From Hoylesella saccharolytica JCM 17484 (GTDB lineage Bacteria; Bacteroidota; Bacteroidia; Bacteroidales; Bacteroidaceae): a stretch of DNA of 64,000 nucleotides. How positions within the stretch are numbered: position 1 is the first letter of the stretch; each line of letters opens with the position of its first letter. The stretch lies in assembly GCF_000614205.1 (NCBI RefSeq), contig NZ_BAKN01000001.1:310001-374000 (forward strand). The letters run 5' to 3'. Below are positions 18,177 through 51,640 of the stretch, in pieces. The translations under genes and the position numbers were made by a program. The notes under the pieces are model-generated. The model was not told the DNA's origin. It did no database searches and worked only from the letters and a program-made list of their open reading frames with translations.

Positions 18177-18615
18177 TACCTCATCTACTTACAAATCGTA
18201 ACTTTTTTAACCTTTGGTTACACTTTCAATTTTCTCTTTTTATTACAAATCACTTTTCCAATCTAGCAAAATATTTTCGTTTATTTGGTCAAAAATCAGC
18301 GTTAAAAATCCAAAAGCATAGGTTTTAAGTGGCAAAAGTATAACTTTTAGGATGCAAAACATCATCTTTTAGCGCCTAAAACCTATGCTTTTACAGTCCG
18401 AAAAACACGGTTTTAGGGCGTTTGAAGAGGGAGAAAAGAAGCGAAAAGTTAATGTGTTTTATGCAAGTTGCTCATTATTAATGATATATGTAATCGTAAA
18501 ATTCTTGCGATTTTGCGAGCTAATAACAAGTTGGTGACTTCGATTGACACTCTCGCGAAGTACCTTCCGATTTCTTGACAAGGCGAAAAGTAACAAATTG
18601 TAAGTAGATGGGGTA
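18177..18615 (+). mobile_element. Interspersed element copy A (full length, MITE-like, with terminal inverted repeats)
   Basis: 439 bp. The left end TACCTCATCTACTTACAA and the reverse complement of the right end, TACCCCATCTACTTACAA, begin 30-base terminal inverted repeats that agree at 26 positions. Inside, in order: a conserved 5' part (CTTTTCCAATCTAGC...CGTTTATTTGGTC), about four 22-bp units (18303-18420), the word GGTTTTAGGGCG, a hairpin (GTAAAATTCTTGCGATTTTGC from 18496) and the core CACTCTCGCGAAG (18549-18561) with TTCCGATTTCTTGACAA. No protein is encoded. It lies in the divergent region between SpmAB and the CHAP amidase gene. Copies B, C and D are in the same orientation. Confidence 0.85.
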
Positions 18616-18648
18616 GGGGGAAGAAGGGGATGTATAAAGTAATTTTTA

Positions 18649-18656
18649 TAACTTTG
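18649..18656 (+). promoter_or_regulatory. Promoter -7 box of the CHAP amidase gene
   Basis: TAACTTTG, matching TAnnTTTG, starting 34 bases beyond the right end of element A, so the upstream promoter region abuts the element. Leader about 65 bases. Confidence 0.65.
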
Positions 18657-18727
18657 TTGCAGGGTTTGCATAGATGTGCAACTGGTATTGATTGTTTTTC
18701 TTGAAATATATAGCATTTTAAAAGGTG

Positions 18728-19351
18728 ATGGTAAAAAAGATAATAGGGGTGGCCGTTTTGTTGGCGGTTGTCTTATTGGCTTCCTATTGGGTTGTTACAC
18801 ACTTCAATTTAAACACGAAAATCGGTAGAGGTGAGGTAACAGACAGTATCAATGGGGTGTACGTATACCATAACGGAGGGGTTAATCAAAGTTCAGGTCG
18901 CAACCTTGTCAAGGGTTATAATGTGGGTATTAAATATCAGTGCGTAGAGTTTGTTAAACGTTATTATTTGCAATTTTATCACCACAAAATGCCCGATGCA
19001 TACGGGCATGCCAAAGATTTCTTTGACAAGACACTACTGAACGGCAGGTTAAATGCGAAAAGAGGGTTGATACAATATCGCAACGGTGAAGGGGTGCAGC
19101 CGCAAACAGGCGACTTGCTGGTGTTCGGACCTTCCTTATTGAATCCTTACGGGCATGTTGCCATTGTATCAAAGGCTGACCATAACCAAGTGGAAATGAT
19201 TCAACAAAATAGTGGTCCGTGGGGAAAAAGCCGAGAAGAAATGAACTTAACGCACATAAAAACAGGCTGGAAGATAGAAAACGAACGGGTGCTGGGTTGG
19301 CTAAGAATGCCGGAAAAGGAAGCTGCCAACAGCAATACATATACAGAATAA
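18728..19351 (+). CDS. CHAP-domain amidase, membrane-anchored or exported
   Basis: 207 residues from ATG at 18728 (a GTG at 18725 is possible). An N-terminal hydrophobic segment (IIGVAVLLAVVLLASYWVV) anchors or exports it. The CHAP domain follows: catalytic Cys in GIKYQCVEFVKRYY (about 75), His in NPYGHVAIVSKA (about 143), and an acidic/Asn partner in the following VEMIQQNSG. Such domains cleave amide bonds in peptidoglycan or glutathionylspermidine; the CVEFVKRYY form resembles the glutathionylspermidine-amidase type. It may be co-transcribed with the two following plus-strand genes. Confidence 0.85.
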   Translation: MVKKIIGVAVLLAVVLLASYWVVTHFNLNTKIGRGEVTDSINGVYVYHNGGVNQSSGRNLVKGYNVGIKYQCVEFVKRYYLQFYHHKMPDAYGHAKDFFDKTLLNGRLNAKRGLIQYRNGEGVQPQTGDLLVFGPSLLNPYGHVAIVSKADHNQVEMIQQNSGPWGKSREEMNLTHIKTGWKIENERVLGWLRMPEKEAANSNTYTE

Positions 19352-19414
19352 ACGAATGAAATAGAGACGATATACGGTTGATACATATTATTTTATTTAA
19401 TAAAATAGAGTAGA

Positions 19415-19894
19415 ATGAGAAAAATGATGTTTTTACTTGCTGTCAGTGGGTTGCTGTTTGCGAACTGTGATGGGTGCAGGCAATGTGTTGACGTAGTCAA
19501 GATGGATAGTGTTAAACTGTGGTATGGCCCCGGAATGATTATGCCGAAAGAACGACATACATGGGTTGTTTATAGCGACGGTCGGGTAAAAGAGTATATT
19601 GAAAAGACCATGCGGTTGATGGATGAACCAGATTCGACACGCGTAAGGATACCTGATAAAGCGAAACAAGAAGAAATGAGCAGTCTTGTTAAGAAGTTGT
19701 TTGTTGAGCGTTCGCAGCCCGACCTTCTTTCAGCGGTGCATAAACAGTATGCCACCGACTTTCCATCGTTAGAAGTACGCGTATATAGCGGTCCGCGAAC
19801 AGTGATGTACTCTTATTATATGGGGTGTCTGGATGCCGTGTATTCGCCACCCTTTAAGCGTTTGAAAGAACTTATGAGTGAAGACAAGAAGTGA
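19415..19894 (+). CDS. Putative lipoprotein of unknown function
   Basis: 159 residues. The N-terminus MRKMMFLLAVSGLLFANC is a lipoprotein signal with a lipobox-like LFANC and Cys at 18. The mature part is mixed alpha/beta (WVVYSDGRVKEYIEK and SSLVKKLFVERSQPD) and recalls small Bacteroidales lipoproteins with no known role. Two more Cys (21, 24) follow the acylated one closely. No named family was recognised. Between the CHAP gene and a membrane protein on the same strand. Confidence 0.7.
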   Translation: MRKMMFLLAVSGLLFANCDGCRQCVDVVKMDSVKLWYGPGMIMPKERHTWVVYSDGRVKEYIEKTMRLMDEPDSTRVRIPDKAKQEEMSSLVKKLFVERSQPDLLSAVHKQYATDFPSLEVRVYSGPRTVMYSYYMGCLDAVYSPPFKRLKELMSEDKK

Positions 19895-19959
19895 GCATCG
19901 TAGAGCCGGCGCTCTTGATGAGCACATCAACAGTTACTAACTTTTAACAGCTTTTGAAG

Positions 19960-20889
19960 ATGATAGCCTTTTTATCGTTTTTGATTCTTTTTATTCTGCT
20001 TTGCTTCATCGCATCGTGGTGGATCGTAAAACGCAGTACATGGATAAAGAATGATGGTCTGCCGGAGAATACAACCGCATGGGGGCGGATAGGTTTTCTT
20101 GCTCTGCGATTGGTGTCGGTTTTTGTGGTAACGGGTGTTTTGCTGTTTACTGCATTCGTACTTGATAGGTCTGAAGATCCCAATGACGAACTGTTTTGGC
20201 TCTTTGTGATTGTCGTCGTATTTTGTTATATCGCCATCCCCGTTGCTTGCATTTATGTTTACTCGTTTTTTAAATGCCTGTTTGACCGGAAAGGCGTGGA
20301 AAAACTCTTTTTGATTTTACACGCTATTGGTATCATGGCCATTTTGTATATTGCTTATCTTTGCATTGTCGACCCCGACCACTGTGATGTCCGCATCATG
20401 GAAAAACATTATCACACGCATCAAAAAGAGCTGACGGCAGTGGTGAATAAGGTTGAAGGGTGGCTTCCGGACAGTGTAAACGTTGACTTAACATTTGATA
20501 AACGTGGCGACATTACCGATTTTGAAACTAATATTCGAGGATTGAACCTCAACGAAATGACTGATAAAGAATGGGGAAAAATAGGATTAAGCACGGCAAA
20601 ACTGGATACGCTTTACCGTGCATTAGAAAAGATAGGTTGCAAAGGGATAAACATTGCCCCGACCCTTTATCCTTATTCGGAAATTAATTTTCGAAGAGGT
20701 TACAGCTTTAGGCTGTACAAACAGGCGCTAACCGATGAAGAAATGAATAATCTGAATGCAAGTTCTTGCTTTTTGGTAGTGAATCGACACACCGTGTTTG
20801 CACTTGACGGTACTTGTACAAAGAGAGAATTTGAAGGGAAAGAGAAGTATCTGCAAGAACAAAAACTGCTCCAACGAGGTCTCGAATAA
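19960..20889 (+). CDS. Membrane protein of unknown function
   Basis: 309 residues from ATG 19960 (a TTG two codons earlier is also open). Four hydrophobic segments fill the first 150 residues (FLSFLILFILLCFIASWWIV; LVSVFVVTGVLLFTAFVL; LFVIVVVFCYIAIPVACIY; AIGIMAILYIAYLCIV). The C-terminal 160 residues are soluble (HQKELTAVVNKVEGWLPD..., with an IGCKGINIAP segment). No known domain recognised. The neighbouring lipoprotein and amidase genes suggest an envelope role, without further support. Confidence 0.7.
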   Translation: MIAFLSFLILFILLCFIASWWIVKRSTWIKNDGLPENTTAWGRIGFLALRLVSVFVVTGVLLFTAFVLDRSEDPNDELFWLFVIVVVFCYIAIPVACIYVYSFFKCLFDRKGVEKLFLILHAIGIMAILYIAYLCIVDPDHCDVRIMEKHYHTHQKELTAVVNKVEGWLPDSVNVDLTFDKRGDITDFETNIRGLNLNEMTDKEWGKIGLSTAKLDTLYRALEKIGCKGINIAPTLYPYSEINFRRGYSFRLYKQALTDEEMNNLNASSCFLVVNRHTVFALDGTCTKREFEGKEKYLQEQKLLQRGLE

Positions 20890-20942
20890 GAAAAATAGCC
20901 TTTATCTTTTATATCTCTCTTTATCTTTGACTTTATGATAAA

Positions 20943-20985
20943 AATAAGGTGAAAAAATGCTATCGACACATCTTTTCACCTTATT
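20943..20985. terminator. Bidirectional terminator between convergent genes
   Basis: AATAAGGTGAAAA (20943-20955) pairs perfectly with TTTTCACCTTATT (20973-20985), loop 17 bases. It serves the plus-strand membrane protein gene and, through A/T runs on both arms, probably also the 7TM-HD gene ending at 21000. Confidence 0.85.
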
Positions 20986-21008
20986 GTTTGTGCACCCTTT
21001 CATCTTTG
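20966..21008. repeat. Diverged copy of the 16094/16640 inverted-repeat arm
   Basis: ACATCTTTTCACC at the left and CACCCTTTCATCTTT at the right match the two ends of the arm sequence next to the flippase start, with the same spacing; only the middle differs. It overlaps the terminator above and the stop codon of the 7TM-HD gene. Confidence 0.7.
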
Positions 21009-23069
21009 AGTGGGTGTGGGCGTGTTGAGTTCGGGGTAAGAAATACGTGTGTGGTAAATGGATTTGAGGCGTTCGAGCATTACAGCCTTAGCTTGCGCGA
21101 TGTCGCGGAAGGTGATGGGGCAGTTGTGGAAGTGCCCTTCGCTTACTTGACGGTCGATAAGGCGATTGATAAGGGCAGAGATGCTCTCTTCGGTGTATTC
21201 GGTAAGCGATCGTGAAGCGGCTTCAACGGTGTCGGCCATCATAAGAATGGCTTGCTCGCGGGTGAAGGGATCTGGTCCGGGATAGGAGAAATCTGCGGGC
21301 GAAACTTCTTCATCGGGGTGCTCGTTTTGATAGTTAACGTAGAAGTATCGTGCTACGCCGGTACCGTGATGAGTAAGAATGAATTCGCGGATGATGGCGG
21401 GTAGGTTTTCTTTCTCGGCCATTTTGATGCCATCAGTAACATGACTGATGATGATTCGGGCACCTTCTTTGTAAGGCATTCCTTTGAGGGGGTTGACACC
21501 GGCTTGGTTTTCAGTAAAGAATACGGGGTTAACCATTTTGCCGATATCGTGGTAAAGGGCTCCGGTACGTACAAGCAGACTATTGGCTCCGATACGATTG
21601 GCTATCTCGGCGGCGAGATTTCCGACGGTGATAGAATGCTGGAAGGTTCCGGGTGCTACTTCGCTCATTCGCCGTAACAATCCTTTATTAGTGTTCGAGA
21701 GTTCGATAAGGGTTACACTGGAAACGAATCCGAAGGTGCGTTCGATAACGTACATCAGTGGATAGGCCAACAGAAGGAGCACACCGTTGGCAATAAAGTG
21801 GCTGTACATGCTACCGTCGAAGTTGCTGATGTCACCGGTTTGCATGAGCTGGAGGGAGAAGAAGATGACGAAATTGCCAAGGGTGACAAAGAGTGCGGTC
21901 TTAAATACTTGGGCTCGACCGGTGAGTTCGCGTAGTGAATAGATGGCAACGAGTCCGCCGGCGAGCTGAATAATGATGAATTCGTATTGATATTTTACGG
22001 CAATAGCGCAGATAAGAATAGTTACAACATGAGTAGTGAAAGCTGTGCGCGAGTCCATGAAGACGCGAATGAACATCGGTCCGATTGCGAAGGGGATGAT
22101 ATAGACGCTGAGAATGCTGTGAGTCATAAAAAGGGATACGAGCACAGGGAAGATCGTTATTATGGCATAGAGCATTACAACGCTACGTATTTTGCTGAAA
22201 TAGTCGCTGCGGAAGAGCCAGATATAAACGGTAAAGAGCACTATCATCAGGGTTACAAAGATGATTTGACCCATAATAGTGGATGTGATTTCTCCTTTTG
22301 ATGCGTTCTGTCGCTGGGTTTCTTTCTCGAAAGAAGCCAGTACACGGTAGGTGTGTTCATTGACGATGTCACCCCGGTCTATAATCTTTTGTCCGGTGAG
22401 TACCATTCCACTGGCCAGCGGAATACCGCTAAGAATATCGTTTCGTTCGGTGGTGCTGCGCTTTTCGTCGTAAATAAGGTTGGGCTGAATATAGGTCACG
22501 ATATCTGATTGTTGCAAAGCCGACTTGTAGGTAGCTAATACCTCGTCGGTCAACAGCTTTTCGTAGGCTGCCATTGTGCTGTATATACAGTTGACAGGAA
22601 TGCTTTGTGCCAGTTTCCCATTGATGATACGAACCATCTTCGTCGAGTCTTTGAAGATATCATTATACTGTGGTGTACTCATGATACCTGCCTGATAGAG
22701 ACGGTGAAGGCGGTCGCGTAGGATGTGCATATAGCCTGCCGGCAGTGTTGGAATGCCTTTTGGGTAATCGGTATGCAACTTCGTTAGTTGCACGTGTTCA
22801 ATGTTTTTCCTATAATTATAATAGGGTTGAAATGCTCCGAGCAAGGAGTCTTGCTCGCTTTTAATCACATCGTCGGTTTTATATACGGGGAAATCGAACT
22901 GAGCAATCAGTGAACCGTACATCCACGGTTTGCCAATATCGTAGCGCATCTGTGGTCCGCTGTTGCGGGGAAGAAACCATACGATGAGCGTTACTGCAAT
23001 AAAGATAAAACCAATTAAGGGAAGTAGTCGGCCCAGCCAACGTTTTTTTAGTGTTTCAAATCTATCCAT
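21000..23069 (-). CDS. 7TM receptor with HD phosphohydrolase domain (PgpH family)
   Basis: 689 residues from ATG at 23069 (MDRFETLKKRWLGRL); the frame is open 35 codons further, but that part overlaps the gltX upstream region and is not conserved in the family. Order: one N-terminal membrane segment, an extracytoplasmic 7TMR-HDED domain (about 60-280), seven membrane segments (about 300-480), and a cytoplasmic HD domain with ALYHDIGKM (metal-binding HD) and LTHHGTG. PgpH-type proteins hydrolyse cyclic di-AMP in Firmicutes; the Bacteroidetes homologues are assumed to do the same. Divergent from gltX. Confidence 0.92.
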   Translation of the reverse strand: MDRFETLKKRWLGRLLPLIGFIFIAVTLIVWFLPRNSGPQMRYDIGKPWMYGSLIAQFDFPVYKTDDVIKSEQDSLLGAFQPYYNYRKNIEHVQLTKLHTDYPKGIPTLPAGYMHILRDRLHRLYQAGIMSTPQYNDIFKDSTKMVRIINGKLAQSIPVNCIYSTMAAYEKLLTDEVLATYKSALQQSDIVTYIQPNLIYDEKRSTTERNDILSGIPLASGMVLTGQKIIDRGDIVNEHTYRVLASFEKETQRQNASKGEITSTIMGQIIFVTLMIVLFTVYIWLFRSDYFSKIRSVVMLYAIITIFPVLVSLFMTHSILSVYIIPFAIGPMFIRVFMDSRTAFTTHVVTILICAIAVKYQYEFIIIQLAGGLVAIYSLRELTGRAQVFKTALFVTLGNFVIFFSLQLMQTGDISNFDGSMYSHFIANGVLLLLAYPLMYVIERTFGFVSSVTLIELSNTNKGLLRRMSEVAPGTFQHSITVGNLAAEIANRIGANSLLVRTGALYHDIGKMVNPVFFTENQAGVNPLKGMPYKEGARIIISHVTDGIKMAEKENLPAIIREFILTHHGTGVARYFYVNYQNEHPDEEVSPADFSYPGPDPFTREQAILMMADTVEAASRSLTEYTEESISALINRLIDRQVSEGHFHNCPITFRDIAQAKAVMLERLKSIYHTRISYPELNTPTPTQR

Positions 23070-23141
23070 GAATAACCTTTCTGCTGTTGTTACACCCCGC
23101 GAAAATACGAAAAAAAGAGGCAATAGTTGGAAAAAAAGCAT

Positions 23142-23149
23142 TAATTTTG
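23142..23149 (+). promoter_or_regulatory. Promoter -7 box of gltX
   Basis: TAATTTTG, 34 bases upstream of the gltX start codon. No -33 TTTG at the usual spacing was seen. Confidence 0.55.
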
Positions 23150-23183
23150 CCGAAAATATAAATCTTACCATCACTTTTCAACG

Positions 23184-24701
23184 ATGACAGAAAGAAAAAT
23201 CCGTGTGCGATTTGCTCCTAGTCCGACGGGGCCTTTACATATTGGCGGTGTGCGTACTGCACTCTACAACTATCTCTTCGCTCGTCAGCATGGTGGCGAT
23301 TTCGTTTTTAGAATTGAAGATACCGACTCGCAACGCTTTGTTCCGGGTGCCGAAGAGTATATCATCGAATCGTTCAGATGGCTGGGTATCAAGTTTGATG
23401 AGGGGGTGAGTTTTGGTGGGTCGCATGGTCCTTATCGCCAAAGTGAACGCAAGGAGATATACCGCGAATATGTGGATAAACTTCTCGAAGCAGGTAAAGC
23501 CTACGTTGCTTTCGATACACCTGATGAATTGGAGGCGAAAAGAAACACCATAGAAAACTTTCAATACGATACACACACACGCGGTATAATGCGTAATTCG
23601 CTTACCTTATCAAAAGAAGAGACCAACCAACTGATTAAAGACGGCACACAATATGTGGTGCGTTTTAAGGTAATACCGGGCGAAGAGGTTCACATTAATG
23701 ATATGATTCGCGGTGAAGTCGTTATCAAGAGCGATATTCTTGATGATAAAGTGCTTTACAAAAGCGCTGACGGACTGCCCACCTATCACCTTGCCAACAT
23801 TGTAGACGACCATCTTATGGAAATCACTCACGTTATTCGCGGTGAAGAATGGTTGCCCAGTGCACCCCTGCACGTTCTCCTTTATAAGGCTTTCGGATGG
23901 CAAGATACGATGCCGCAGTTTGCCCATTTGCCCTTGTTGCTTAAACCGGAGGGCAAAGGAAAACTGTCGAAACGCGATGGAGATAGGCTCGGTTTTCCTG
24001 TATTTCCGCTCGAATGGCACGACCCTAAAACAGGTGAAGTGTCGTCGGGATATAAAGAAAGTGGATATTTTCCTGAAGCAGTAGTCAACTTTCTTGCGCT
24101 TTTGGGCTGGAATCCTGGTACCGAACAAGAGCTCTTTTCGCTTGAACGACTCGTTGAAGCCTTTGACATCAGTCGTTGTTCTAAGTCAGGAGCCAAGTTT
24201 GATTATCAAAAAGGAATCTGGTTTAACCACGAATACATCCTGCAGAAAAGCAACGAAGAGATTGCCGAACTTTTCGCACCGACAGTCGCCAATAATGGTA
24301 TCGACGAACCCATGGAACGCATTGTGCAAGTGGTTGCGATGATGAAAGACCGGGTAAACTTTGTAAAAGAACTTTGGGATCTTTGCTCATTCTTCTTCAT
24401 AGCACCTCTCGAATATGATGAAAAAACGGTGAAAAAACGCTGGAAAGAGAATTCTGCCGAAGTAATGGCACAGCTGGCAGAAGTACTTAGAGGGCTTGAT
24501 GACTTTTCTATTGAAAACCAAGAGCATGTTGTTTTTGCATGGATGGAAGCGAAAGGCTACAAGCCGGGCGATGTGATGAATGCTTTCCGGCTCGCCTTAG
24601 TAGGCATCGGAAAAGGTCCCGGAATGTTTGATATCACCGCTTTCTTAGGAAAAGAAGAAACGTTAAGGCGTCTTGAGCGGGCCATCGAAGTATTAAAGTA
24701 A
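23184..24701 (+). CDS. gltX: Glutamyl-tRNA synthetase
   Basis: 505 residues, class I synthetase charging tRNA-Glu. The HIGH motif is PLHIGG (about 18-22) within [20 protein letters not shown]; the KMSKS motif is KLSKRDG (about 260). FRIEDTD (about 42) and the anticodon-binding helical C-terminus are present. The gene is intact. It is followed after 24 bases by the Kdo transferase gene and is probably co-transcribed with it. Confidence 0.98.
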
Positions 24702-24725
24702 AAGCCAAAAACAAGCAACAACAAC

Positions 24726-25946
24726 GTGTATAATCTTATTATCTATCTCTATCTATTAGGTGTGGCGATAGCTTCGCTCTTCAATGCCAAAGTAAGAAAA
24801 ATGTGGCGGGGAGAGAGAAAGGCATTCGACATCCTCAAAGAAAAAGTTGACAAAGACGCGCATTACATATGGTTTCATGCCGCTTCCTTAGGAGAGTTTG
24901 AGCAAGGACGGCCCTTAATAGAGCGTATTCGTCACGATTATCCCACGTATAAAATTCTTCTCACTTTCTTTTCTCCCTCTGGCTACGAGGTAAGAAAAGA
25001 TTATGATCAAGCCGATATTATTTGTTATCTGCCGTTAGATACCCCTTTTAATGCCCGCCGTTTCCTGCGCATGGTGCGTCCCGAAGCAGTTTTCTTCATT
25101 AAATACGAGTTTTGGTACAATTATCTTCACATTCTGAAACATCGCGGTATTCCCACTTATAGTGTTAGTAGTATCTTCCGTCCCGAGCAGGTTTTCTTTA
25201 AATGGTACGGCCGACGCTATGGAAAGGTATTGGCATGTTTTACCCATTTTTTTGTACAAAACGACCTCAGTAAAGTCCTTTTGGCAAACTTGGGGCTGCA
25301 TAACGTCACTGTTGTGGGCGACACTCGTTTCGATAGGGTGCTTCAGATCAAGGAGTCGGGTAAACACCTGCCTATTATAGAGGCATTCAAACAAGGAAAA
25401 AAGATATTTGTTGCAGGAAGTAGTTGGTTACCCGACGAAGATATTTTTATTCCATTTTTCAATCAACACCGTGATTGGAAACTGATTATTGCACCACATG
25501 TTATTGATGAAGACCGGCTCGAAAGCTTGCTTTCGCAGCCCCATCGCAAAACTGTACGTTACACACAGACTACACCCGAAGAGGCAGCACAAGCTGATTG
25601 TTTGGTGATAGATTGTTTTGGACTTCTTTCCAGCATTTATCATTATAGCGATGTTGCTTACGTTGGCGGTGGGTTCGGTGTCGGAATACACAATCTTCTC
25701 GAAGCTGCCGTATGGGGAGTTCCCGTTATTTTCGGACCCAACAACAAACGTTTTGAAGAGGCGCAGGGCTTATTAGCTGCTCGCGGCGGGTTTGAAATCA
25801 CCTCTCAAACCGACTTTTTGCAATTAATGGAAGGCTTTATCAATGACGAAAACAGCTTAAAAGCTGCCGGCGAAAGGGCTGAAGAATTTGTCGAAAAGCT
25901 TTCCGGAGCCACCGATAAAGTGTTGTCTGCCATCAGCCTATCGTAA
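24726..25946 (+). CDS. kdtA: 3-deoxy-D-manno-octulosonic acid transferase
   Basis: 406 residues, beginning at GTG 24726 (MYNLIIYLYLLGVAIASLF), a membrane anchor typical of WaaA/KdtA; no ATG gives a complete anchor. It transfers Kdo to lipid A precursor on the inner face of the inner membrane. Seen: HAASLGEFEQGRPLI (N-domain, general base Glu region), TFFSPSGYEVRK, GDTRFDRV between domains, and the GT-B donor-site segment YVGGGFGVGIHNLLEAAVWG in the C-domain. Length is normal. Confidence 0.95.
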   Translation: MYNLIIYLYLLGVAIASLFNAKVRKMWRGERKAFDILKEKVDKDAHYIWFHAASLGEFEQGRPLIERIRHDYPTYKILLTFFSPSGYEVRKDYDQADIICYLPLDTPFNARRFLRMVRPEAVFFIKYEFWYNYLHILKHRGIPTYSVSSIFRPEQVFFKWYGRRYGKVLACFTHFFVQNDLSKVLLANLGLHNVTVVGDTRFDRVLQIKESGKHLPIIEAFKQGKKIFVAGSSWLPDEDIFIPFFNQHRDWKLIIAPHVIDEDRLESLLSQPHRKTVRYTQTTPEEAAQADCLVIDCFGLLSSIYHYSDVAYVGGGFGVGIHNLLEAAVWGVPVIFGPNNKRFEEAQGLLAARGGFEITSQTDFLQLMEGFINDENSLKAAGERAEEFVEKLSGATDKVLSAISLS

Positions 25947-25954
25947 AACTATTT

Positions 25955-26340
25955 TCTAAAATCTATTCTTTTGCAACCTAAAAGCTATGCTTTTGGAAGC
26001 TAAAACATCATCTTTTACTCTGCAAAACCTATGCTTTTACATCTCAAAACATCATCTTTTAGGAGGTAAAACATCATCTTTTAGGAGGTAAAAACATTAT
26101 CTTTTGTATGCCCAAAGCTATGTTTTTGCAACCCGAAAAGCATGGTTTTAGAGTGTTTAGGAGGGATAAATAACAAGAAAAATATAGTTATAAGTATGTA
26201 AAGTTTTAATTATCAAATATATACATAATAGTAAAATCCTTGCATTCTTATGAGCTTATAACAGGTTAATGGCTTCGATGAGCACTCTCGCGAAGCACCA
26301 GCCCATTTTTTGACAACTATAAAACTTACGATTTAAAACT
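25955..26340 (+). mobile_element. Interspersed element copy B (5' part missing, longest 22-bp array)
   Basis: Begins directly after kdtA inside the 22-bp array: about eight units from 25962 to 26150, each CTATGCTTTT or ATCATCTTTT, a 7-base linker and AAAAC or AAAAG. Then CATGGTTTTAGAGTG, a region matching the hairpin part of A and D (GTAAAATCCTTGCATTC), the core GCACTCTCGCGAAGCACC (26282-26299), TTTTTTGACAA and AAAACTTACGATTT. The 5' terminal repeat seen in A and D was not found. It lies between convergent genes. Confidence 0.8.
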
Positions 26341-38567: not shown

Positions 38568-38689
38568 TTACCAAAGATATTACCACTACTTGGTAATCGG
38601 TTTACCAATGGCTGGTAATCGAGTTACCGATAGTTGGTAATAAGATTACCAATGCGTGGTAATTGCGTTACCATTCGTTGGTAATTTGG
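38568..38689. repeat. 22-bp array of TTACCA-N5-TGGTAA dyads
   Basis: Five units start at 38580, 38602, 38624, 38646 and 38668, exactly 22 bases apart. Each is TTACCA (once TTACCG), five variable bases (CTACT, ATGGC, ATAGT, ATGCG, TTCGT), TGGTAA, and a five-base variable linker (TCGGT, TCGAG, TAAGA, TTGCG, TTTGG). An extra TTACCA half-site lies at 38568. The arms are conserved while the centres and linkers vary, which indicates selection on the dyad, as for a protein-binding site. Confidence 0.92.
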
Positions 38690-44049: not shown

Positions 44050-44297
44050 GATATCTAAAACGATACTTTTACTTTCTGGAAAGCATGATTTTAGGGCGTT
44101 TCAGGCGAGTAAAAAGAGGATAAAGTCTATTCTTAAACGTGTAAGCTGCTAATTACCAGAATTATACGGAGCCACAAAGTTCTTGATTTTTTATGAATCA
44201 AGAACAAGTTGGAGGATTTTGTTGGTATTCTTGCGAAGTTGTTTCCGATTTCTTAATAAGGTCAAAAGTTAGGATTTGTAACTTCTATTGACCCTTC
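44050..44297 (+). mobile_element. Interspersed element copy C (diverged, shortest array)
   Basis: Only about one 22-bp unit (GATACTTTTACTTTCTGGAAAG) precedes CATGATTTTAGGGCGTTTCAGG. The distal part matches A, B and D: GTAAGCTGCTAATTA, a hairpin region TTCTTGATTTTTTATGAATC, AACAAGTTGGAGGATTTTGT, ATTCTTGCGAAGTTG (core, 44227-44241), TTCCGATTTCTTAATAA and AAAAGTTAGGATTTGTAACTT. Located between the divergent mtaB and susC-like genes; 43918-44049 next to it shows nothing else. Confidence 0.75.
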
Positions 44298-44455: not shown

Positions 44456-44564
44456 TCCGCATCCTTCATATTCTTCAGATAAAAGTATGATCTCTAAAAT
44501 GTAAGTTGAAAGGTTATTTCTATTGAAAATAAATAGAAATAACGCTAATTTAATTAAAAATTCA

Positions 44565-44572
44565 TACATTTG
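44565..44572 (+). promoter_or_regulatory. Promoter -7 box of the susC-like operon
   Basis: TACATTTG followed by TAGTTTC, 20 bases upstream of the susC-like start codon. Confidence 0.55.
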
Positions 44573-44592
44573 TAGTTTCAAATAATAATTGT

Positions 44593-47500
44593 ATGCGAAC
44601 AGTTTTAACTTTATTTCTTGCTTTTGCATTGGGACTTGGCTATGCTGAAACAACAAACTACAACAGTCGCACTGCACAGAGAGCCATCGGAGAAAATGAT
44701 GAAAATATAGTTTCAGGGGTGGTGCGCGACCCTGTGGGAGAGCCGTTGGCGGGTGTTACCGTGCTGCAAAAGGGAACGACAAACAAGGTGGTTACCGATA
44801 CCGACGGGCGTTATACGCTGCGCTTAAAACAGGGAGCGGCGCGCTCGCTGGTGCTGAGTTACATCGGAATGAAAACGCTTACAGTACCGGTGAACGGTAA
44901 TACAGCCGACCTAACGATGCAGGAGGATGCCAATCAGCTACAAGATGTTATTGTAAAAGGAGCCTACGGAACGGCACAAAAACGGTCGGATTTAGTGGGA
45001 AGTGCCTTTCAAGTAAACGCCGAACAATTGAAAAGTCTGCCTCAACAGCGGCTCGATGTGATGCTTGACGGACTTATTCCGGGTGTAAAAATTGCGCCTA
45101 ACACCGAAGAACCGGGGTCGCCCAGAACGCGTTTTAATGTACGTGTGCGTGGAGAAGCATCGCTCAATGCTTCTAACGAACCGTTATGGGTAATTGATGG
45201 AACGCCAATGTACACAGGAGATCGTACAAATATGATGCCGGGAACGAGTTATACGGTAAGTCCGTTGTCGTTTATCAATCCCGAAGATATTGAGTCGATA
45301 ACGGTGCTGAAAGATGCTACCGCCACCTCTATATATGGTGCCGATGGTGCCAACGGAGTGGTTTTGGTAACTACAAAGAAAGGACGCGATGGTAAATTGA
45401 ATGTCCGTGTGAATACACAATACGGTCTTGCCAATATCGATAAAAGCACTGAGCCGAAGGTAATGAATGCCCAACAGTGGCTCGACTTGGCGCGAACGGC
45501 TTACAAAAACGCAGGGTTGGATATGCGAGCGTTTCCTTATCAGGACAACGACATGAATTCTTACTCAACGACTGATACCAATTGGCGAGATGTTTTCTAT
45601 GGAACGGGAACAACATTCCTTACTAATGTGTCGCTCAACGGAGGTACACAGAAGTCGGATTATTATCTTTCGGGACAGTATTTTCTGAACAACGGAACGG
45701 TGAAAGGTAACACGCAGCAGCGTCTTTCATTGCGTTCTAATCTCGGTTTTCAACTCAATAAGAAACTCAAGTTAAGTGTCGATCTCTCTGCCAGCTATAA
45801 CGACAACGACCTTTTTGCACTTGGTCGCGAGTATTATCAGCTGTTGCCCATTTTCAGTCCCTATAATGCCGACGGTACATACCGTTTATATAATAAGGTG
45901 GTAGATGGTATTGACGGTTCTGGAAACCCTATTTGGCGCACGCAACGGTTTACCAAAAACTCGGTGATGGAGCGCGACCAGAACCTCAATAACCAGAAGG
46001 CGTGGTTTCTGCACAGTAATTTTATGCTGGCTTACGACGTGTTGAAGGGATTAAAATATACCGCCCAGCTAGCTTACGACTATCAAAGCACCCTCGAGGA
46101 AACGTACAATTCGCAGAAAAACTGGTCGGGAATGAGCACCGAAGGCAACGCTGTGGGCTACTCGCGACGTTCGTCTGCCGATATCATTAACCTCACCACC
46201 ATTCATCGATTGAATTATAACAGAACCTTCGGAAAGCATTCTGTAGGCGGCGTTGTGGGTTTTGAGGCAGGCGCACGCAATTATACAACGATGTATGTAA
46301 CAGGTTCGGGCTTCATCAACGACAACATTCAGGATGTCAGTCAAGCCAATACACGTAACGGTTACAATTCGAGCAACAAGAATAGAAAGGCTTCTTTCCT
46401 CGGTCAGCTAAGCTATTCGTTCGATCATCGCTATTATCTTACCGTCAATGCACGAAAAGACGGCAATTCGCAATTCGGTTCCGATGTGCGCTGGGCTAAC
46501 TTTGCATCGGCGGGTGTATCGTGGAATGTACATAACGAGAAGTGGTTTAAGTTGCCTTGGATGAATGTTTTGAAGTTGAAAGCCAGCTACGGAGCTAACG
46601 GAAATTCGCGTATCGGAGCGCAAGAGTCGCTTGGAACCTATCAGTATGGTGACAGTTATGCCTATAACGGCGTAGCGGCGGAGTGCAAGGGCAATCGCCC
46701 AACTCGCGCTTAAGTTGGGAAACAACCTACATGACCAATCTCGGCATACGCATTGCGGTGCTCAATCGGATTGATTTGGAAGTAGAAGTCTACAACAATC
46801 AGACGCAAAACCTGCTCAGTCAGCTCCCTGTTTCATTACTCACCGGTGATACTCGCGTGTATCGAAACATAGGCGAGATACGCAATCGAGGCATCGAAGC
46901 CACCCTGACTACCCGTAACTTCGTGGGCAAAAAAGAAGGCGACTTTACATGGACAACCGACTTTAACATCGCGCACAATACCAACAAGCTGGTTAAATCT
47001 TATCGCGGCACGCAGGTAAACTTTACCGACGGCTACTCGTGGATGGAGGGCGAAGATACACGAACCTATTATCTGGTAAGGTGGGCAGGCGTAGATCCCT
47101 ACGACGGAAGCCCACTTTGGTACGATGCCGAAGGCAACATCACCAAGACATACGATAGTGTACGGAACCGTGTTCGTGGTAAAACATCGAATTCAACCGT
47201 TACGGGTGGACTGACGAACACGATGAGTTACAAAGGCTTTTCGTTGCGTTTTATGCTCAACTATCAGTTTGGCGGCTACACATACGGTTCGTTTGCCGCC
47301 ATCGGAAATACCGATGGATACAACGTTATGGATACCAATCAGGCGATAGAACAACAATATTACTGGCAAAGTCCGGGTAACATAGCTCGTAATCCCAAGC
47401 CTCTTGCCGGCGTAAGTACGGGCTCTGCGCGTCAGTCTACCCGCTTTTTGTACCACAAAGACCTAATTAGGTTGCAGAATGTAGTGCTGAGTTATGAGCT

Positions 47501-47675
47501 ACCCAAGCATCTGATGCGACATTGGAAACTAACCGGTTGCACTGTTTCGCTTATCGGCGATAACCTGATGGCTTATTCGCCATATGCCCGAAGCGACTGA
47601 AACTCTTATAAAACGATGATGAACGGCTATCCTTTAGAACGCACTTTTTCGCTCTCGCTCAATGTAGGTTTTTAA
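44593..47675 (+). CDS. SusC-like TonB-dependent outer-membrane transporter, frameshift plus internal stop as sequenced
   Basis: About 1027 residues after repair. Signal peptide MRTVLTLFLAFALGLGYA, then a carboxypeptidase-regulatory-like domain (VSGVVRDPVGEPLAGVTVLQKGT, about 40-115), the plug (GSAFQVNAEQLKSLPQQRL; SINGADGANGVVLVTTKKG-type SIYGADGANGVVLVTT) and a 22-strand barrel. One base is missing near 46675 (GCGGCGG-AG), joining the frame ending at 46713 to MQGQSPNSRLSWETTYM. A TGA at 47598-47600 interrupts ARSD-x-NSYKTMMNGYPLER; the same frame continues to TAA at 47673 and ends in SLSLNVGF, the expected C-terminal strand with final Phe. The pair with SusD imports oligosaccharides or peptides; substrate unknown. 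Confidence 0.92.
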
Positions 47676-47696
47676 TTAAAGACGAATATCACAGAT

Positions 47697-49096
47697 ATGA
47701 AAACAAATATAATCAGATACGGTTGCTGGGCTCTATTGGCTTTTGTAACCGCCGGATGCAACGATTTTCTTAACGTAGAACAAAAAGGAAGAACAACCAT
47801 TCCCGCCTTTTTATCCACTCCCCGAGGTTTAAAAGCGGGTTTGGCAGGCACGTATAACACGCTTTACGCTTACTACGACAACGAGTTTTTGAAGTATCCT
47901 GAGGTTACAGGCAATATGAGCAGTATAAATTTGTCGTCCGGTTCGTCAATGCTCGAGCAGTATAACTTCACCCCCAACCCCGGGGATGGTACCACCTCCT
48001 ATTATATATGGAAACGAATGGCAGAAGCCATGACCAACGCCAATAATCTCATTCAATACGAACCGGCAGTAGAAAGTGCATATCCGGCACAGGCTGCAGA
48101 ATGCAAACAGATATTGGGGCAGGCCTTATTAATACGTGCATGGTGCATTTTGACATGGTAAGAGTATATGCACAGCCCTATAACTATACTGCCGACGCAT
48201 CGCATATTGGTATTCCCGTGCAGATAAAATCACCCGGACCCGATGATAATCTGGCACGAAACACGGTGAAAGAGGTGTACGACCAGATTTTATCCGATCT
48301 CAATCAAGCGGCTCAAATCCTAACCGATGAGGCTGCAACTGATGTACATTATGGTTCGTTGCAAGCCGTTAACGCCCAGCTTTCGCGCGTTTATCTCTAC
48401 ATGGAGAATTGGCAACAGGCGTTAACTTACGCCCAACGTGCCATCGGAACGCAAACACTGGCACAGGCCGATGATTACATCAATATGTTTATGAACCTGA
48501 ACACGCGGGGCGAAACCATTTTACGATTAAGCGGAAAAGACATTAACGGCAAGCTGAAAGGTTTTTACGAGTCGGAATGTTTGCCGGCAGACACCCTGCT
48601 GACGCTGTTTGATACCGATGACATCCGGTTGCGTTTGCTCCGTTCCGGAGGTGAAAAGAAGTGCATGAAATACACTGCAACGACTATCCCCGATAATCAA
48701 GATAAGCGTGAAGACCCCATTCTCTTCCGTCTTTCAGAGATGTATCTCACCGCTGCCGAAGCTGCTTGGCACCTCAATAACTACACCGAGGCGCGCTTGC
48801 ATATCAAAGCAGTGATGGAAAGAGCAGTAGGAACAGTAAAAGCCGACGCTGCATTGACCGCTTGTACCGATGCCGAACTGCTCGAGTTGATTTTGAAAGA
48901 GCGAGTGAAAGAACTGTGTTTCGAGGGGCATAACTTCTTCGACTTGACTCGCCGCAAGCAAAGTATTGTGCGAGAAGCGGCTAGCAATGCTACTGTAAAG
49001 CGCATTAATTATCCCAGCAAATATTTTGTTCTGCCTATTCCCAGATACGAATTGAATGCCAATGGCCGTATGCAACCCAACGAAAATAACGACTAA
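47697..49096 (+). CDS. SusD-like surface lipoprotein (RagB/SusD), one frameshift as sequenced
   Basis: About 466 residues after repair. Lipoprotein signal with FVTAGC (Cys near 20: CWALLAFVTAGCNDFLNVEQKG). The first frame ends at 48161; restoring one C near 48145 (TGC-CAT) gives RAWCHFDMVRVYAQPYNYTADASHIGIPV, the hallmark SusD segment before the TPR helices. The C-terminus has PILFRLSEMYLTAAEAAWHLNN, ERVKELCFEGHNFFDLTRRKQS and FVLPIPRYELNANGRMQPNE, all typical. It binds the nutrient and caps the SusC channel. Starts 21 bases after the SusC stop. Confidence 0.93.
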
Positions 49097-49100
49097 AGAG

Positions 49101-49559
49101 ATGAAAAATATATGGCTTTTAGGGTTTGCCATCGCTTTGATGACAGCCTGCAACAAAGAAGAATTCAACGGATACGATATGCCTTTCGTGCGTATCTCCA
49201 CAGAAACGGGTGCTTCGTCGACAACAGTTTTGTCGAATGTTCGTAACATCAATACGTATGTTGTTACGCTAAGTTCGCGCCCATTAACCACCCCGCTTGT
49301 CGTAAACTACGAGATAAAGGTGGGTGACGGCTTACAAACGGGCGTGGATTACGAGCTGGTTACCACCGGTAACACGCTTACTTTTGAGCCCGGCGTGTAT
49401 GATATGCCTATTCGTATTAAGTGGCTGCCGCATACAGTAGATGCGCAAAAAGACAATACGCTGACCATTACGCTTACCGGAAACAATCAGAATTTGCTGC
49501 TCGGATTACCCGGAAACGCTGCTCGGCAAAGGGTTTTAACTATCACTAAACAGAATTGA
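49101..49559 (+). CDS. Surface lipoprotein, DUF1735/BT_3044-like
   Basis: 152 residues from ATG 49101 (MKNIWLLGFAIALMTACNK), the lipobox being LMTAC with Cys 17; the open frame reaches 49056 inside SusD and is not the start. One beta domain of about 120 residues: ISTETGASSTTVLSNVRNIN, VVTLSSRPLTTPLVVNYEI, LTFEPGVYDMPIRIKWLP, NTLTITLTGNN. This pattern fits the N-terminal immunoglobulin-like domain of DUF1735-type lipoproteins found beside SusCD pairs. A glycan- or protein-binding accessory is likely; function not shown. Confidence 0.78.
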   Translation: MKNIWLLGFAIALMTACNKEEFNGYDMPFVRISTETGASSTTVLSNVRNINTYVVTLSSRPLTTPLVVNYEIKVGDGLQTGVDYELVTTGNTLTFEPGVYDMPIRIKWLPHTVDAQKDNTLTITLTGNNQNLLLGLPGNAARQRVLTITKQN

Positions 49560-49560
49560 T

Positions 49561-51075
49561 ATGAAGAAAACAATGCAAATATACGCTTATGTAGCAGGTT
49601 GGTTGCTGGCTGTGTGTATGTCGGCCTGTTCAGATAAAGATAACTTTTCGCACGGTAATGTTGATGCTCCGCGCTTTACGAGCTTCGGTTTTTATCAGGA
49701 AGATAACCCCGGTGTGCTTGCTGCCGACTATGTAGCAGACCTTACAGCCATTGAAACGGCGGGCACGTCTACCGTAAAATTGAACGTACCGATGCCTGCT
49801 ACTGTTGATAAATCGAATCTAATTGCCCGCTTTACAACCGCCGAAGGCACTACCGTGCGTGTGAATGGAACTGTTCAAACCAGTCGAACCACTGCTAATA
49901 ACTTCACCGTTCCGGTAGATTATATCGTTGGTTTGGGAGCACTGAACGTGCGTTATGCCGTAACTGTTGTAAAGGTAACGAACATGAAATGGACAGAAAT
50001 AACACCATTTTCAGACCTTGCCGTGTACGGCGATGCTGTGATGAAAATCAACCCGCAAGATGGTTTGCCCTACATTGGGTTTAAAGTTCGCACCGCCGAC
50101 GACAACCGCTCGGCTGTTATCAAGCTGACCAACAGTGGCTGGGCGTATGTAGGCGAGGGTGCGTTCGGTCATAAAATCAGCGGTTCTTACTTTGATATGG
50201 CGTTCTCGACAGATGGTGTTCCCTACGTAGCTTACTCGGATAACGAGGCCGCAGAGAAAGGGGCGATGAGTGTTCAGTATTTTGATGGCTCGACGTGGAC
50301 ATATACCGGAGGCACGGCGGGCATACTCAAGGCACAGTCTAATTACGTTTCGCTGGCGGTGTTGGCAAACGGACAGGTAGTTGGTGCACAAATCAATAAC
50401 AGCCGTCGTGCCGATTATCCGCAGCGCAAACTTGTGGTTTCAGTGTATAAAAACGGAATATGGAGCAGCGAAATACCCTCCATGCTGACCAACGATGTAG
50501 CTATGGTGAGTGCCGCCGGTGGAACAAATGCTGCCTATCTTATCTCTATCAATCGCGGCAAAGTGAACGGTGTAGACTACGGCTATAATGTTTTGAAATA
50601 CGAAAACAACACGTGGAATTCCCTCTTGCTAAATCATCCGGAGTCAGGCTATACGCAACATAACATCCGTACCATCGGTATTTATGTGGCACCCGACCAA
50701 ACGCCCTATATCTGGACGATGGATAAAGTGTCGGGCGAAACTGGTATTCGACTGAAGTATTATGATACGGCGACCAATAATTGGATAACGGTGGGTGGTA
50801 ACATTTTGCCCTTAGGCTTCACCCCCGACCGCCACACCGACATAGCTTTGGCTGTTACTGCCAACGGAACACCCTTCATTGCCTACAATAATGCTGCCGA
50901 TCAGAACCGTCCTTACTTTATGTATCTCGAACCTGATACGCGCCAATGGAGCACGCCTGCTAAGCTTTCCGACACACCCGCCAGTGGGTTGCGCATTGCA
51001 TTTACGCACTCTGGCGTAGGTTATGTTACATTTGCCGATAGTAAAAATCTTTTACATACCTTTAAATACGAGTAA
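49561..51075 (+). CDS. Surface lipoprotein with Ig-like N-domain and beta-propeller-like repeats
   Basis: 504 residues, lipoprotein signal with CMSAC (Cys about 22). Residues 35-140 form an immunoglobulin-like domain similar to DUF5018 domains (TSFGFYQEDNPGVLAADYVADL; VDKSNLIARFTTAEG). The rest has repeated blades of the type G-x-P-Y-I/V-A/G-Y: DGLPYIGFKV, DGVPYVAYSDN, QTPYIWTMD, GTPFIAYNNA, GVGYVTFAD, spaced about 60-80 residues, as in six- or seven-bladed propellers. No catalytic residues recognised. The last gene of the SusCD operon; it could be a substrate-binding partner. Confidence 0.72.
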   Translation: MKKTMQIYAYVAGWLLAVCMSACSDKDNFSHGNVDAPRFTSFGFYQEDNPGVLAADYVADLTAIETAGTSTVKLNVPMPATVDKSNLIARFTTAEGTTVRVNGTVQTSRTTANNFTVPVDYIVGLGALNVRYAVTVVKVTNMKWTEITPFSDLAVYGDAVMKINPQDGLPYIGFKVRTADDNRSAVIKLTNSGWAYVGEGAFGHKISGSYFDMAFSTDGVPYVAYSDNEAAEKGAMSVQYFDGSTWTYTGGTAGILKAQSNYVSLAVLANGQVVGAQINNSRRADYPQRKLVVSVYKNGIWSSEIPSMLTNDVAMVSAAGGTNAAYLISINRGKVNGVDYGYNVLKYENNTWNSLLLNHPESGYTQHNIRTIGIYVAPDQTPYIWTMDKVSGETGIRLKYYDTATNNWITVGGNILPLGFTPDRHTDIALAVTANGTPFIAYNNAADQNRPYFMYLEPDTRQWSTPAKLSDTPASGLRIAFTHSGVGYVTFADSKNLLHTFKYE

Positions 51076-51096
51076 AAAGAGGAACGTCTTTTAGTG

Positions 51097-51125
51097 ATGC
51101 GGATATACGATTTGTATATCCGCAT
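51097..51125 (+). terminator. Terminator of the SusCD operon
   Basis: ATGCGGATATAC (51097-51108) and GTATATCCGCAT (51114-51125) form a perfect 12-bp stem with a 5-base loop, followed by TGCATTTATTT; 22 bases after the stop. Confidence 0.9.
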
Positions 51126-51171
51126 TGCATTTATTTATAGTTTTGTATAAACTTTAAACCACTATTCTATC

Positions 51172-51640
51172 TACCCCCTTTACTTACAAATTGTTATTTT
51201 TTTAACATTTTATTACGGTTTTGTTTTTCTCTTTTTGTTACAATTCACTTTTCCAATCTAGCGAAATATTCTCGTTTATTTGGTCAAAAAATAGGTTTGA
51301 TTTTCCAAAAATATAGCTTTTGAGTTGCAAAAACATAGCTTTTAGCTTGCAAAAACATAGCTTTTAGCTTGCAAAACATCATCTTTTGTATACTCAAACC
51401 TATGCTTTCACCACCCCCAAACCACGGTTTTAGGGCGTTGCGGAGGGGTAAATAATAGGTAAAATTTATATAGAAATGTGCAAGTTACTAATTATCAATA
51501 ACATATATAGCTGTAAAATTCTTGCAATTTTACGAGCCGAGAATAAATTAGAAGATTTTGTTGGCACTCTCGCGAGGTTGCTTCCGATTTCTTGACAATA
51601 CCAAAACTTACAATTCGTAAGTTTTCGTCGTCATCTGGTA
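51172..51640 (+). mobile_element. Interspersed element copy D (full length, MITE-like)
   Basis: 469 bp, from TACCCCCTTTACTTACAAA to TCATCTGGTA; the outer TACC...GGTA matches copy A. The 5' part (CTTTTCCAATCTAGCG, then CGTTTATTTGGTC) is nearly identical to A. The array (51303-51430) has about five 22-bp units, two of them perfectly repeated (CATAGCTTTTAGCTTGCAAAAA). Then CACGGTTTTAGGGCGTTG, a perfect hairpin GTAAAATT-CTTGC-AATTTTAC (51513-51533), the core GGCACTCTCGCGAGG (51562-51576), TTCCGATTTCTTGACAA, and a second hairpin AAAACTTAC-AATTC-GTAAGTTTT (51603-51625). Lies between the SusCD terminator and rpsU. Confidence 0.85.

What the first reader, a model, noticed from the sequence alone, without database searches (positions are those of the whole stretch)
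18177..51640. A new-looking interspersed element family (copies A 18177-18615, B 25955-26340, C 44050-44297, D 51172-51640)
Four intergenic stretches share the same order of words: a 22-bp unit array, (C/A)(A/C)(T/C)GGTTTTAGGGCG, a hairpin GTAAAATT-N5-AATTTTAC, CACTCTCGCGAAG, TTCCGATTTCTTGACAA and a terminal ACTTAC word. Copies A and D are full length: both begin TACC and end GGTA, and A has 30-base terminal inverted repeats with 26 matches. This fits a non-autonomous MITE with TA target duplication. All four lie in the same orientation, in divergent, convergent and tandem gene contexts, so they are not terminators or promoters of one gene class. No transposase is visible in the window.
Basis: partly seen in the sequence, partly recalled or inferred. 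Interest (0 to 1): 0.8.

Follow-up and report, generated by a model that had tools for sequence, protein, structure and literature searches.

The report
Phase-locked curved-DNA repeat in Prevotella
This bacterium carries dozens of copies, between its genes, of a 417-base DNA block in which short runs of A or T recur every 11 bases; such DNA is predicted to be strongly bent, neighbouring copies lie at least about 5,700 bases apart in the DNA examined, and they likely help to fold the chromosome, although this has not been tested in cells.

Summary
The repeat family is real and all four window copies belong to it. In 1.08 Mb plus 18 further loci of this genome there are 81 family loci, 50 of them full; the 71 with called neighbours lie between genes. 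Length is fixed: 36 of 49 two-ended copies are exactly 417 bp, although the 34 that align without gaps are only 77% identical.

The MITE reading is only partly supported: there is a 19-bp terminal inverted repeat, but no target duplication, no conserved TACC/GGTA ends (2 of 49), and no transposase-bearing relative was found.

What stands out is physical. A/T runs recur every 11.0 bp along the block in all 34 copies tested, and each is predicted to be strongly curved. Families in three other genomes of the genus share this; one sits behind tnaA like the published repeat PINSR. None of 58 intervals between copies is under 5.7 kb, where about 14 under 5 kb are expected. Intergenic arrays in Prevotella favour a 22-bp period.

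Most likely it is a curved-DNA architectural element that spread like a small mobile repeat; function is inferred.

The parts
18188..18604 (+). copy A, full length, 417 bp
   Evidence: both ends present; A/T-run power at 11 bp 7.24 (0 of 500 shuffles as high), curvature 0.357 (0 of 100)
18188..18206 (+). copy A 5' terminal inverted repeat (19 bp)
18586..18604 (-). copy A 3' terminal inverted repeat (19 bp)
18312..18421 (+). copy A array of five 22-bp units (A run, 7-8 bp, T run, spacer)
18422..18604 (+). copy A 3' module with the 3' end
25953..26339 (+). copy B, 5' end missing, array enlarged by 22-bp units
   Evidence: A/T-run power at 11 bp 13.3 (0 of 500 shuffles, measured on 25955-26340)
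44057..44283 (+). copy C, 3' part only (profile 195-421)
   Evidence: phasing p 0.006, curvature not above shuffles (p 0.28, measured on 44050-44290)
51183..51621 (+). copy D, full length, 439 bp = 417 + one 22-bp unit
   Evidence: power 7.17 (0 of 500), curvature 0.386 (0 of 100)
51183..51201 (+). copy D 5' terminal inverted repeat
51603..51621 (-). copy D 3' terminal inverted repeat
51307..51438 (+). copy D array of six 22-bp units

Best explanation
Each full copy is an intergenic block, usually 417 bp, in which runs of A or T recur every 11 bp along its length, so it is predicted to be strongly curved DNA and likely works as a spaced architectural site that pins supercoils or is bound by a nucleoid protein such as HU. 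Shown here: the fixed length, the phasing in every exact-length copy, the site/spacer pattern of conservation in the array, the intergenic position in both orientations with an excess in divergent gaps, and the minimum spacing between copies. Predicted: the curvature, from a wedge model. Inferred: that the family spread as a small mobile repeat (terminal inverted repeats, ends private to this genome among those searched), that selection keeps length and phase, and that the function is architectural (shaping or insulating stretches of roughly 10 kb) rather than RNA or protein.
For: Length: 36 of 49 two-ended copies are 417 bp and 8 more are within 1 bp; the 34 align without gaps at 77% mean identity (63-93%). 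D differs by exactly one 22-bp unit. Phasing: power of A/T runs at 11.0 bp is 6.80 against 0.51 in dinucleotide shuffles, 1.08 in 71 non-element intergenic windows and 0.70 in 300 coding windows; 34 of 34 copies exceed the 99.9th percentile of shuffles, and so do 36 of 36 in the recount. All three modules show it. 31 of 38 consensus A/T runs lie within a quarter turn of one 11-bp lattice (phase taken from the same data; about 19 would by chance), and run columns are more conserved than other A/T columns (1.65 against 1.38 bits, p 7e-7). In the three array units at positions 147-212, sites hold 1.69-1.82 bits and 7-bp spacers 0.90-1.12. Curvature over 120 bp: 0.364 (lowest copy 0.279) against 0.144 shuffled (95th percentile 0.230) and 0.139 intergenic (0.234). 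Other species: G253 (11 copies) and G302 (8 of 9 aligned copies measured) have locked 3'-part lengths (177-179 and 195-196 bp), phasing and curvature; G124 has 37 of 38 copies at exactly 183 bp and 37 of 37 curved above the 95th percentile of shuffles. Spacing: 58 intervals in 1.08 Mb, none under 5.7 kb; random intergenic placement gives 13.7-15.1 under 5 kb and never zero in 2000 runs. Divergent gaps, the sites expected to be negatively supercoiled (recalled), hold 30 of 71 copies (p 6e-5 against their share of intergenic DNA). Seven HU-family genes over cut-off in the genome.
Against: No experiment. 11-bp A/T periodicity is a common feature of bacterial intergenic DNA (PMC516772, PMC4132750, abstract starts in the listing), and this genome's own non-element intergenic DNA shows it weakly (1.08; one window reached 4.86). 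Copy C is not predicted to be curved; the lowest G302 copy (0.192) is below its shuffle threshold (0.204). In G124 the spectral peak is broad (3.1 at 10.5, 2.6 at 11, 2.8 at 11.5 bp). The spacing rule could be target immunity of an unknown transposase, or loss of close copies by recombination. Terminal inverted repeats suggest selfish DNA that needs no function. The divergent excess would also fit insertion preference for promoter regions. 22-bp arrays of unrelated sequence elsewhere in Prevotella do not generally show 11-bp A/T phasing inside the unit (mean p 0.44 over 54 arrays). Five of the 49 two-ended copies depart from 417 by more than 1 bp (392, 405, 419, 439, 460). A near-10-kb rhythm of spacing is not significant (p 0.14).
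Confidence: 0.5

Rival explanations
1. It is an ordinary non-autonomous mobile repeat (MITE-like) whose transposase has been lost or lies in the missing part of the draft genome; target immunity of that transposase keeps copies apart, and the sequence has no role for the host.
For: 19-bp terminal inverted repeats; end sequence nearly private to this genome, 90 sites against 0-5 in 59 other genomes; no preferred transcription direction; the genome is a draft of 82 contigs, 93.75% complete.
Against: No target duplication; the 16 loci read around end sites lacking a partner at exactly 417 bp all proved to be copies, with no gene-sized ORF between ends; length is locked although sequence has drifted by 23%; the 11-bp lattice runs through the whole block and recurs in families of other species.
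Confidence: 0.35
2. The arrays are operator arrays: a sequence-specific dimeric DNA-binding protein covers about 15 bp of each 22-bp unit, all on one face of the helix, and builds a filament; curvature is a by-product of A/T-rich half sites.
For: Conserved 15-bp sites with freer 7-bp spacers at an exact 22-bp step; near-palindromic units whose cores occur in both orientations; the 22-bp step is kept by unrelated units in Prevotella.
Against: Phasing extends over the 5' and 3' modules outside the array; palindromy of 22-bp units is weak overall (4 of 23 and 2 of 13 units at p 0.05 or less); no candidate protein.
Confidence: 0.25
3. It is a promoter-upstream bend: copies sit in divergent regions because bent DNA there tunes the flanking promoters.
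For: 30 of 71 copies in divergent gaps against 8 in convergent ones (p 6e-5 and 0.008 against intergenic length).
Against: 33 of 71 are in tandem gaps without preferred orientation (18 against 15) and 8 in convergent gaps; no gene-class link was tested.
Confidence: 0.15
4. It is a structured RNA or a small-protein gene.
For: One frame of the 3' module is open in most copies and shows a synonymous bias (ratio 0.58 of expectation); a hairpin GTAAAATT/AATTTTAC exists in D.
Against: An antisense frame shows the same ratio (0.57); no conserved start and in-frame stops in 16 of the 54 matches in this genome; consensus fold of only -7.2 kcal/mol over 475 columns; hairpin covariation not above shuffles; no Rfam match besides tRNAs in the window at gathering thresholds.
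Confidence: 0.05

Closest known systems
[quoted passage not shown] 2015, PMC4755523; abstract, section 3.4 in full and other passages read)
   Same: Intergenic, non-coding, high copy number, lineage-specific amplification in Prevotella. A two-replicon tnaA-bearing genome (G124, name withheld) has a repeat behind tnaA, where PINSR is reported; that repeat holds the same kind of 22-bp array and matches the profile (best E 4e-14).
   Different: PINSR is reported as 188 bp, without terminal inverted repeats and distinct from MITEs; the present block is 417 bp and has 19-bp inverted ends. The printed PINSR consensus is in a figure and could not be compared.
BrickBuilt MITE of Porphyromonas gingivalis (Klein et al. 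2015, PMC4596501; passages read)
   Same: MITE-like element with an internal tandem array (23 nt) and small inverted ends, intergenic, in Bacteroidales.
   Different: BrickBuilt ends (GAGACC...) match IS5-family elements of its host; present ends match no element found. Unit is 22 bp. Variable target duplications in some BrickBuilt copies, none found here.
REP/BIME and REPIN families (PMC2817692, PMC3116915; search listing only)
   Same: Dispersed repeats, often palindrome-bearing mosaics reported to bind several proteins.
   Different: No REP-type tag or RAYT gene was looked for here; the length lock and 11-bp lattice were not seen described in those listings.
Phased A-tract, intrinsically curved DNA in prokaryotes (PMC3940949 and PMC4060949 passages; PMC3431218 and PMC516772 listing)
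   Same: A/T runs at the helical step, tied to curvature and possibly nucleoid structure.
   Different: What I saw of those works treats genome-wide signal; here it is concentrated in a discrete, fixed-length, repeated and spaced block.

Membership tests
MITE | short non-coding element with terminal inverted repeats | tested here: met
   417 bp; 19-bp ends, mean 15.6 of 19 matching in 34 copies and in 36
MITE | target-site duplication | tested here: not met
   44 and 49 copies, lengths 2-10, offsets -6 to +24: no excess at the boundary
MITE | related autonomous element with matching ends | tested here: not met
   90 end sites in the genome; 16 loci around sites without an exact-417 partner read, no gene-sized ORF between ends, though a 117-codon stop-to-stop frame overlaps one end in L222; 0-5 sites in 59 relatives; the one cluster, in G045, lies about 50 bp inside another repeat. 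Draft genome, so absence is not complete
MITE | empty sites in relatives | tested here: inconclusive
   In 80 named Prevotellaceae loci no profile hit at E 1e-3 or better lies within 1.2 kb upstream of xerC, where D lies; one weak hit in L118, E 0.066. Upstream DNA held ranged from 0.7 to 10 kb, and no junction was aligned
PINSR | sequence homology to the P. intermedia repeat | tested here: inconclusive
   Profile matches the repeat behind tnaA in G124; the genome's name is withheld and the PINSR consensus was not readable
PINSR | 188-bp unit without terminal inverted repeats | tested here: not met
   417 bp with inverted ends
PINSR | intergenic, high copy number | tested here: met
   71 copies with both neighbours called, 3 of them overlap an ORF call of negligible score
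BrickBuilt | 23-nt units and GAGACC-type ends shared with IS5-family elements | tested here: not met
   22-bp units, CTTACAA-type ends
Phased A-tract curved DNA | A/T runs at a 10-11 bp step | tested here: met
   34 of 34 and 36 of 36 exact-length copies above the 99.9th percentile of shuffles
Phased A-tract curved DNA | predicted curvature | tested here: met
   all 34 copies above the 95th percentile of shuffles and of intergenic windows (wedge values recalled); copy C not
Phased A-tract curved DNA | anomalous gel mobility | not testable with these tools
   needs the bench
Structured RNA | covarying conserved fold | tested here: not met

The most novel reading that the evidence does not exclude
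Prevotella chromosomes carry a sequence-encoded ruler: species-specific families of length-locked, 11-bp-phased curved-DNA blocks, kept at least about 6 kb apart and typically about 10 kb, that set or anchor supercoil domains; PINSR and the 22-bp intergenic arrays found across Prevotella are parts of the same system.
Probability: 0.25. Interest if true: 0.85.

Novelty: new variant of a known kind. Interest (0 to 1): 0.65.

Why it matters
The 2015 paper on PINSR left its function open. The traits found here give such repeats a testable one: DNA shape. If the spacing and phase are selected, this would be a discrete, repeated, sequence-defined candidate for supercoil-domain sites in a bacterial genus. 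It also names a simple rule that anyone can check in public genomes: intergenic tandem arrays in Prevotella favour 22 bp.

Tried and rejected
Structured RNA: consensus fold of -7.2 kcal/mol over 475 columns, hairpin covariation not above shuffles. Small protein: one frame with N/S about 0.58 of expectation, but an antisense frame has 0.57, there is no conserved start, and stops occur in 16 of 54 matches. Autonomous parent: the 16 loci read around end sites without an exact-417 partner are all copies; the five identical end-like sites in G045 lie about 50 bp inside another repeat at contig ends. TA or other target duplication: none. An early impression from a cruder gene map that the 3' end points at genes vanished with the better map and more copies. 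The context count (59 copies) could hold duplicates because loci were merged by sequence signature; it was replaced (71 copies, merged by place), which makes the divergent excess stronger than I first had it. Palindromy as the general feature of 22-bp arrays: weak. 11-bp A/T phasing as a general feature of all 22-bp arrays: not supported. Spacing in multiples of 10 kb: not significant (p 0.14). Phage and plasmid records: no match. Literature searches for an earlier description; only PINSR and BrickBuilt came close among what I looked at.
Full report
What was checked. The window is C82:310001-374000 of an unnamed 2.98-Mb draft genome in 82 contigs. Its XerC is at most 71% identical to the 80 named Prevotellaceae loci returned. 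A profile of 32 genome copies finds all four stretches of the finding.

Size and ends. A pattern for the ends, CTTWCAAWYTGTWASTTTT with up to one mismatch, has 90 sites in the genome (43 forward, 47 reverse) against 0 and 1 for the reversed control, and 0-5 in 59 other genomes. A recount over five whole contigs (1.08 Mb) and 18 further loci, merged by place, gives 81 family loci: 50 full, 22 partial, 9 array-only. Of the 50 full ones, 49 have both ends recognised; lengths are 417 (36 copies), 416 (5), 418 (3), and 392, 405, 419, 439 (D) and 460 (one each). An earlier count gave 34 of 44 (D was missed there because its hit is split). Those 34 align without gaps at 77% mean identity, range 63-93%. 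Among the 36 of the recount some pairs fall to 37% without gaps, so at least one copy keeps 417 bp through offsetting indels. Bacterial non-coding DNA normally collects roughly one indel per 5-20 substitutions (recalled, not tested here), so a locked length at 23% divergence is unusual.

Not a standard MITE. No convincing direct repeat of 2-10 bp flanks the copies at any offset tested. The outer flanks fall into recurring classes, mostly octamer-like arrays (CTTTTTCACC or CTACTTACC types), found in mixed combinations at the two ends. TACC and GGTA at the offsets of copy A occur together in 2 of 49 copies. Sixteen loci around end sites without a partner at exactly 417 bp were read; all are copies, diverged, truncated or slightly off in length, and none has a gene-sized ORF between ends, though a 117-codon stop-to-stop frame overlaps one end in L222. 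The genome is 93.75% complete, so a parent in the missing part is not excluded.

Context. With a codon-based gene map trained on this genome, 71 full or partial copies have a called gene on each side: 33 tandem (18 co-oriented, 15 anti-oriented), 30 divergent, 8 convergent; three overlap a called ORF of negligible score. Divergent gaps are over-represented against their share of intergenic DNA (p 6e-5; divergent against convergent p 0.008). No transcription direction is preferred.

The 11-bp lattice. In the 34 exact-length copies, runs of three or more A or T have a sharp spectral peak at 11.0 bp: mean power 6.80, against 0.51 for dinucleotide shuffles, 1.08 for 71 intergenic windows of C82 without the element and 0.70 for 300 coding windows. 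Neighbouring periods are near background (0.23 at 10.5, 1.01 at 11.5). Every copy exceeds the 99.9th percentile of shuffles, as do all 36 in the recount. The 5' module, the array and the 3' module each show it (1.42, 5.87 and 2.12 against 0.45-0.60 shuffled), nearly in phase at 6.0, 4.6 and 4.4 bp, although the last 100 bp are weak and 1-2 bp off. Of 38 runs in the consensus, 31 lie within a quarter turn of one lattice whose phase was taken from the same data. Ten two-ended copies of other length also show the signal, 3.2-9.2. In the array units at 125, 147, 169 and 191, the 15-bp sites hold 1.66-1.82 bits and the 7-bp spacers 0.90-1.20; the fifth unit has a conserved spacer (1.80). A wedge model, with parameters from memory, predicts curvature of 0.364 over 120 bp against 0.144 for shuffles and 0.139 for intergenic controls; the weakest copy, 0.279, is above the 95th percentile of both. 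In the window, A, B and D are phased and curved, C is phased (p 0.006) but not curved.

Relatives. A profile of the 3' module finds matches in 26 of 398 genomes of the genus, own included, with strict filters and 6 candidates scored per genome. G253 and G302 hold large families of their own (40 candidates scored in each, of 71 and 88). In the copies measured (11 of 11 and 8 of 9 aligned) the part from the last array unit to the end is 177-179 and 195-196 bp. A/T phasing exceeds the 99th percentile of shuffles in 8 of 11 and 7 of 8. Mean curvature is 0.34 in both, with a shuffled 95th percentile of 0.20-0.21; the lowest G302 copy, 0.192, is below it.

The known repeat. Naito et al. 2015 (PMC4755523, section 3.4 read in full) describe PINSR: 188 bp, 177-184 copies, intergenic, no terminal inverted repeats, function left open, found behind tnaA in P. 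intermedia ATCC 25611. It has 303 candidates, 40 of them scored. Of 38 copies extracted, 37 are exactly 183 bp within the query used, at 84% identity. 28 of 37 exceed the 99th percentile of shuffles for phasing, with a broad peak (3.1 at 10.5, 2.6 at 11, 2.8 at 11.5 bp), and 37 of 37 the 95th for curvature. It holds four 22-bp units of the same kind and matches the own-genome profile at best E 4e-14. That G124 is P. intermedia or a near relative, and that this repeat is PINSR, is inference from these traits.

Spacing. In five contigs of the own genome (1.08 Mb) there are 63 family loci (36 full, 20 partial, 7 array-only; hits within 500 bp merged) and 58 intervals. None is under 5 kb; the smallest is 5.7 kb and 32 lie between 5.7 and 12.5 kb. 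Random placement in the same intergenic gaps gives 13.7-15.1 intervals under 5 kb and never zero in 2000 runs. For full copies alone the smallest is 7.4 kb (at most 1 of 2000 runs as high; no interval under 5 kb, p 0.0015-0.007). Overall variation of intervals is lower than random only when array-only loci are included (0.71 against 0.94-0.95, p about 0.01; 0.96 without them, not different). In 220 kb of G124, 1 of 22 intervals is under 2.5 kb against 6.3 expected for a Poisson process (no gene-map null there).

A wider rule. In 80 named Prevotellaceae loci (109 kb intergenic) repeated similarity at lag 22 occurs 16 times, at 44 eight times, at 66 four times, at 11 five times, and at any other lag from 9 to 99 at most three times. 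In 400 kb from G016, G040 and G162, 25 of 45 intergenic tandem arrays have periods that are multiples of 22 and none has 21 or 23. In the named loci it is 24 of 95; in own C82 outside the element 7 of 35, where multiples of 8 are commoner (14 of 35); in 20 loci of other Bacteroidales families 3 of 17, with 3 at 21. Most units look unrelated in sequence. Eight of the 80 named loci have such an array just upstream of xerC, the intergenic region where D lies.

Reading. The block is best explained as phased, predicted-curved DNA whose length and phase are kept, spread by an unknown route and used architecturally. Mobility by an unknown transposase with target immunity explains ends and spacing without function, but not the lattice, the length lock or their recurrence in families of other species. 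The divergent excess fits a supercoil role, a promoter-bend role or an insertion preference alike. I put the architectural reading at 0.5.

Noticed in passing
window 38580-38685, 16589-16647: Other 22-bp or 44-bp intergenic arrays with unrelated units (TTACCAATAGTTGGTAA type; TCAGAACTTATGTGGGTATCTA). Prevotella intergenic arrays as a class favour 22 bp.
   Followed up: partly
window 783-1253: A 41-bp array of about 10 units; 41- and 42-bp arrays recur on this contig, and 41-nt arrays are also described in Porphyromonas gingivalis (PMC4596501, passages).
   Followed up: no
array units of copies, e.g. L006 and L026 against L005: Unit cores occur in both orientations between copies at the same place (AAAAGCATAGCTTTT and AAAAGCTATGCTTTT; AAAACATCATCTTTT and AAAAGATGATGTTTT), as if hairpin loops had inverted; length is kept.
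   Followed up: no
flanks of many copies, e.g. L017, L005, L018: Octamer-like arrays (CTTTTTCACC) and, next to some, a GGCTAACGCC palindrome with a T-run, terminator-like, lie beside copies on either side.
   Followed up: partly
window 51476-51595 and the same place in other copies: A frame ending ...KILAFLRAKNKLDDFVGTLARLLPIS* (consensus) is open in most copies, with N/S about 0.58 of expectation (an antisense frame 0.57), but no conserved start; perhaps a relic of an older coding sequence.
   Followed up: partly
G045 contig ends (L295-L299): A repeat ending CGTGGACAGTAGTG lies at five contig ends; it looks like an insertion-sequence end.
   Followed up: no
named loci L080, L086, L091, L094, L128, L129, L135, L153, about 9.2-9.6 kb: 22-bp arrays of different sequence in the region upstream of xerC, the same region as copy D.
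   Followed up: partly
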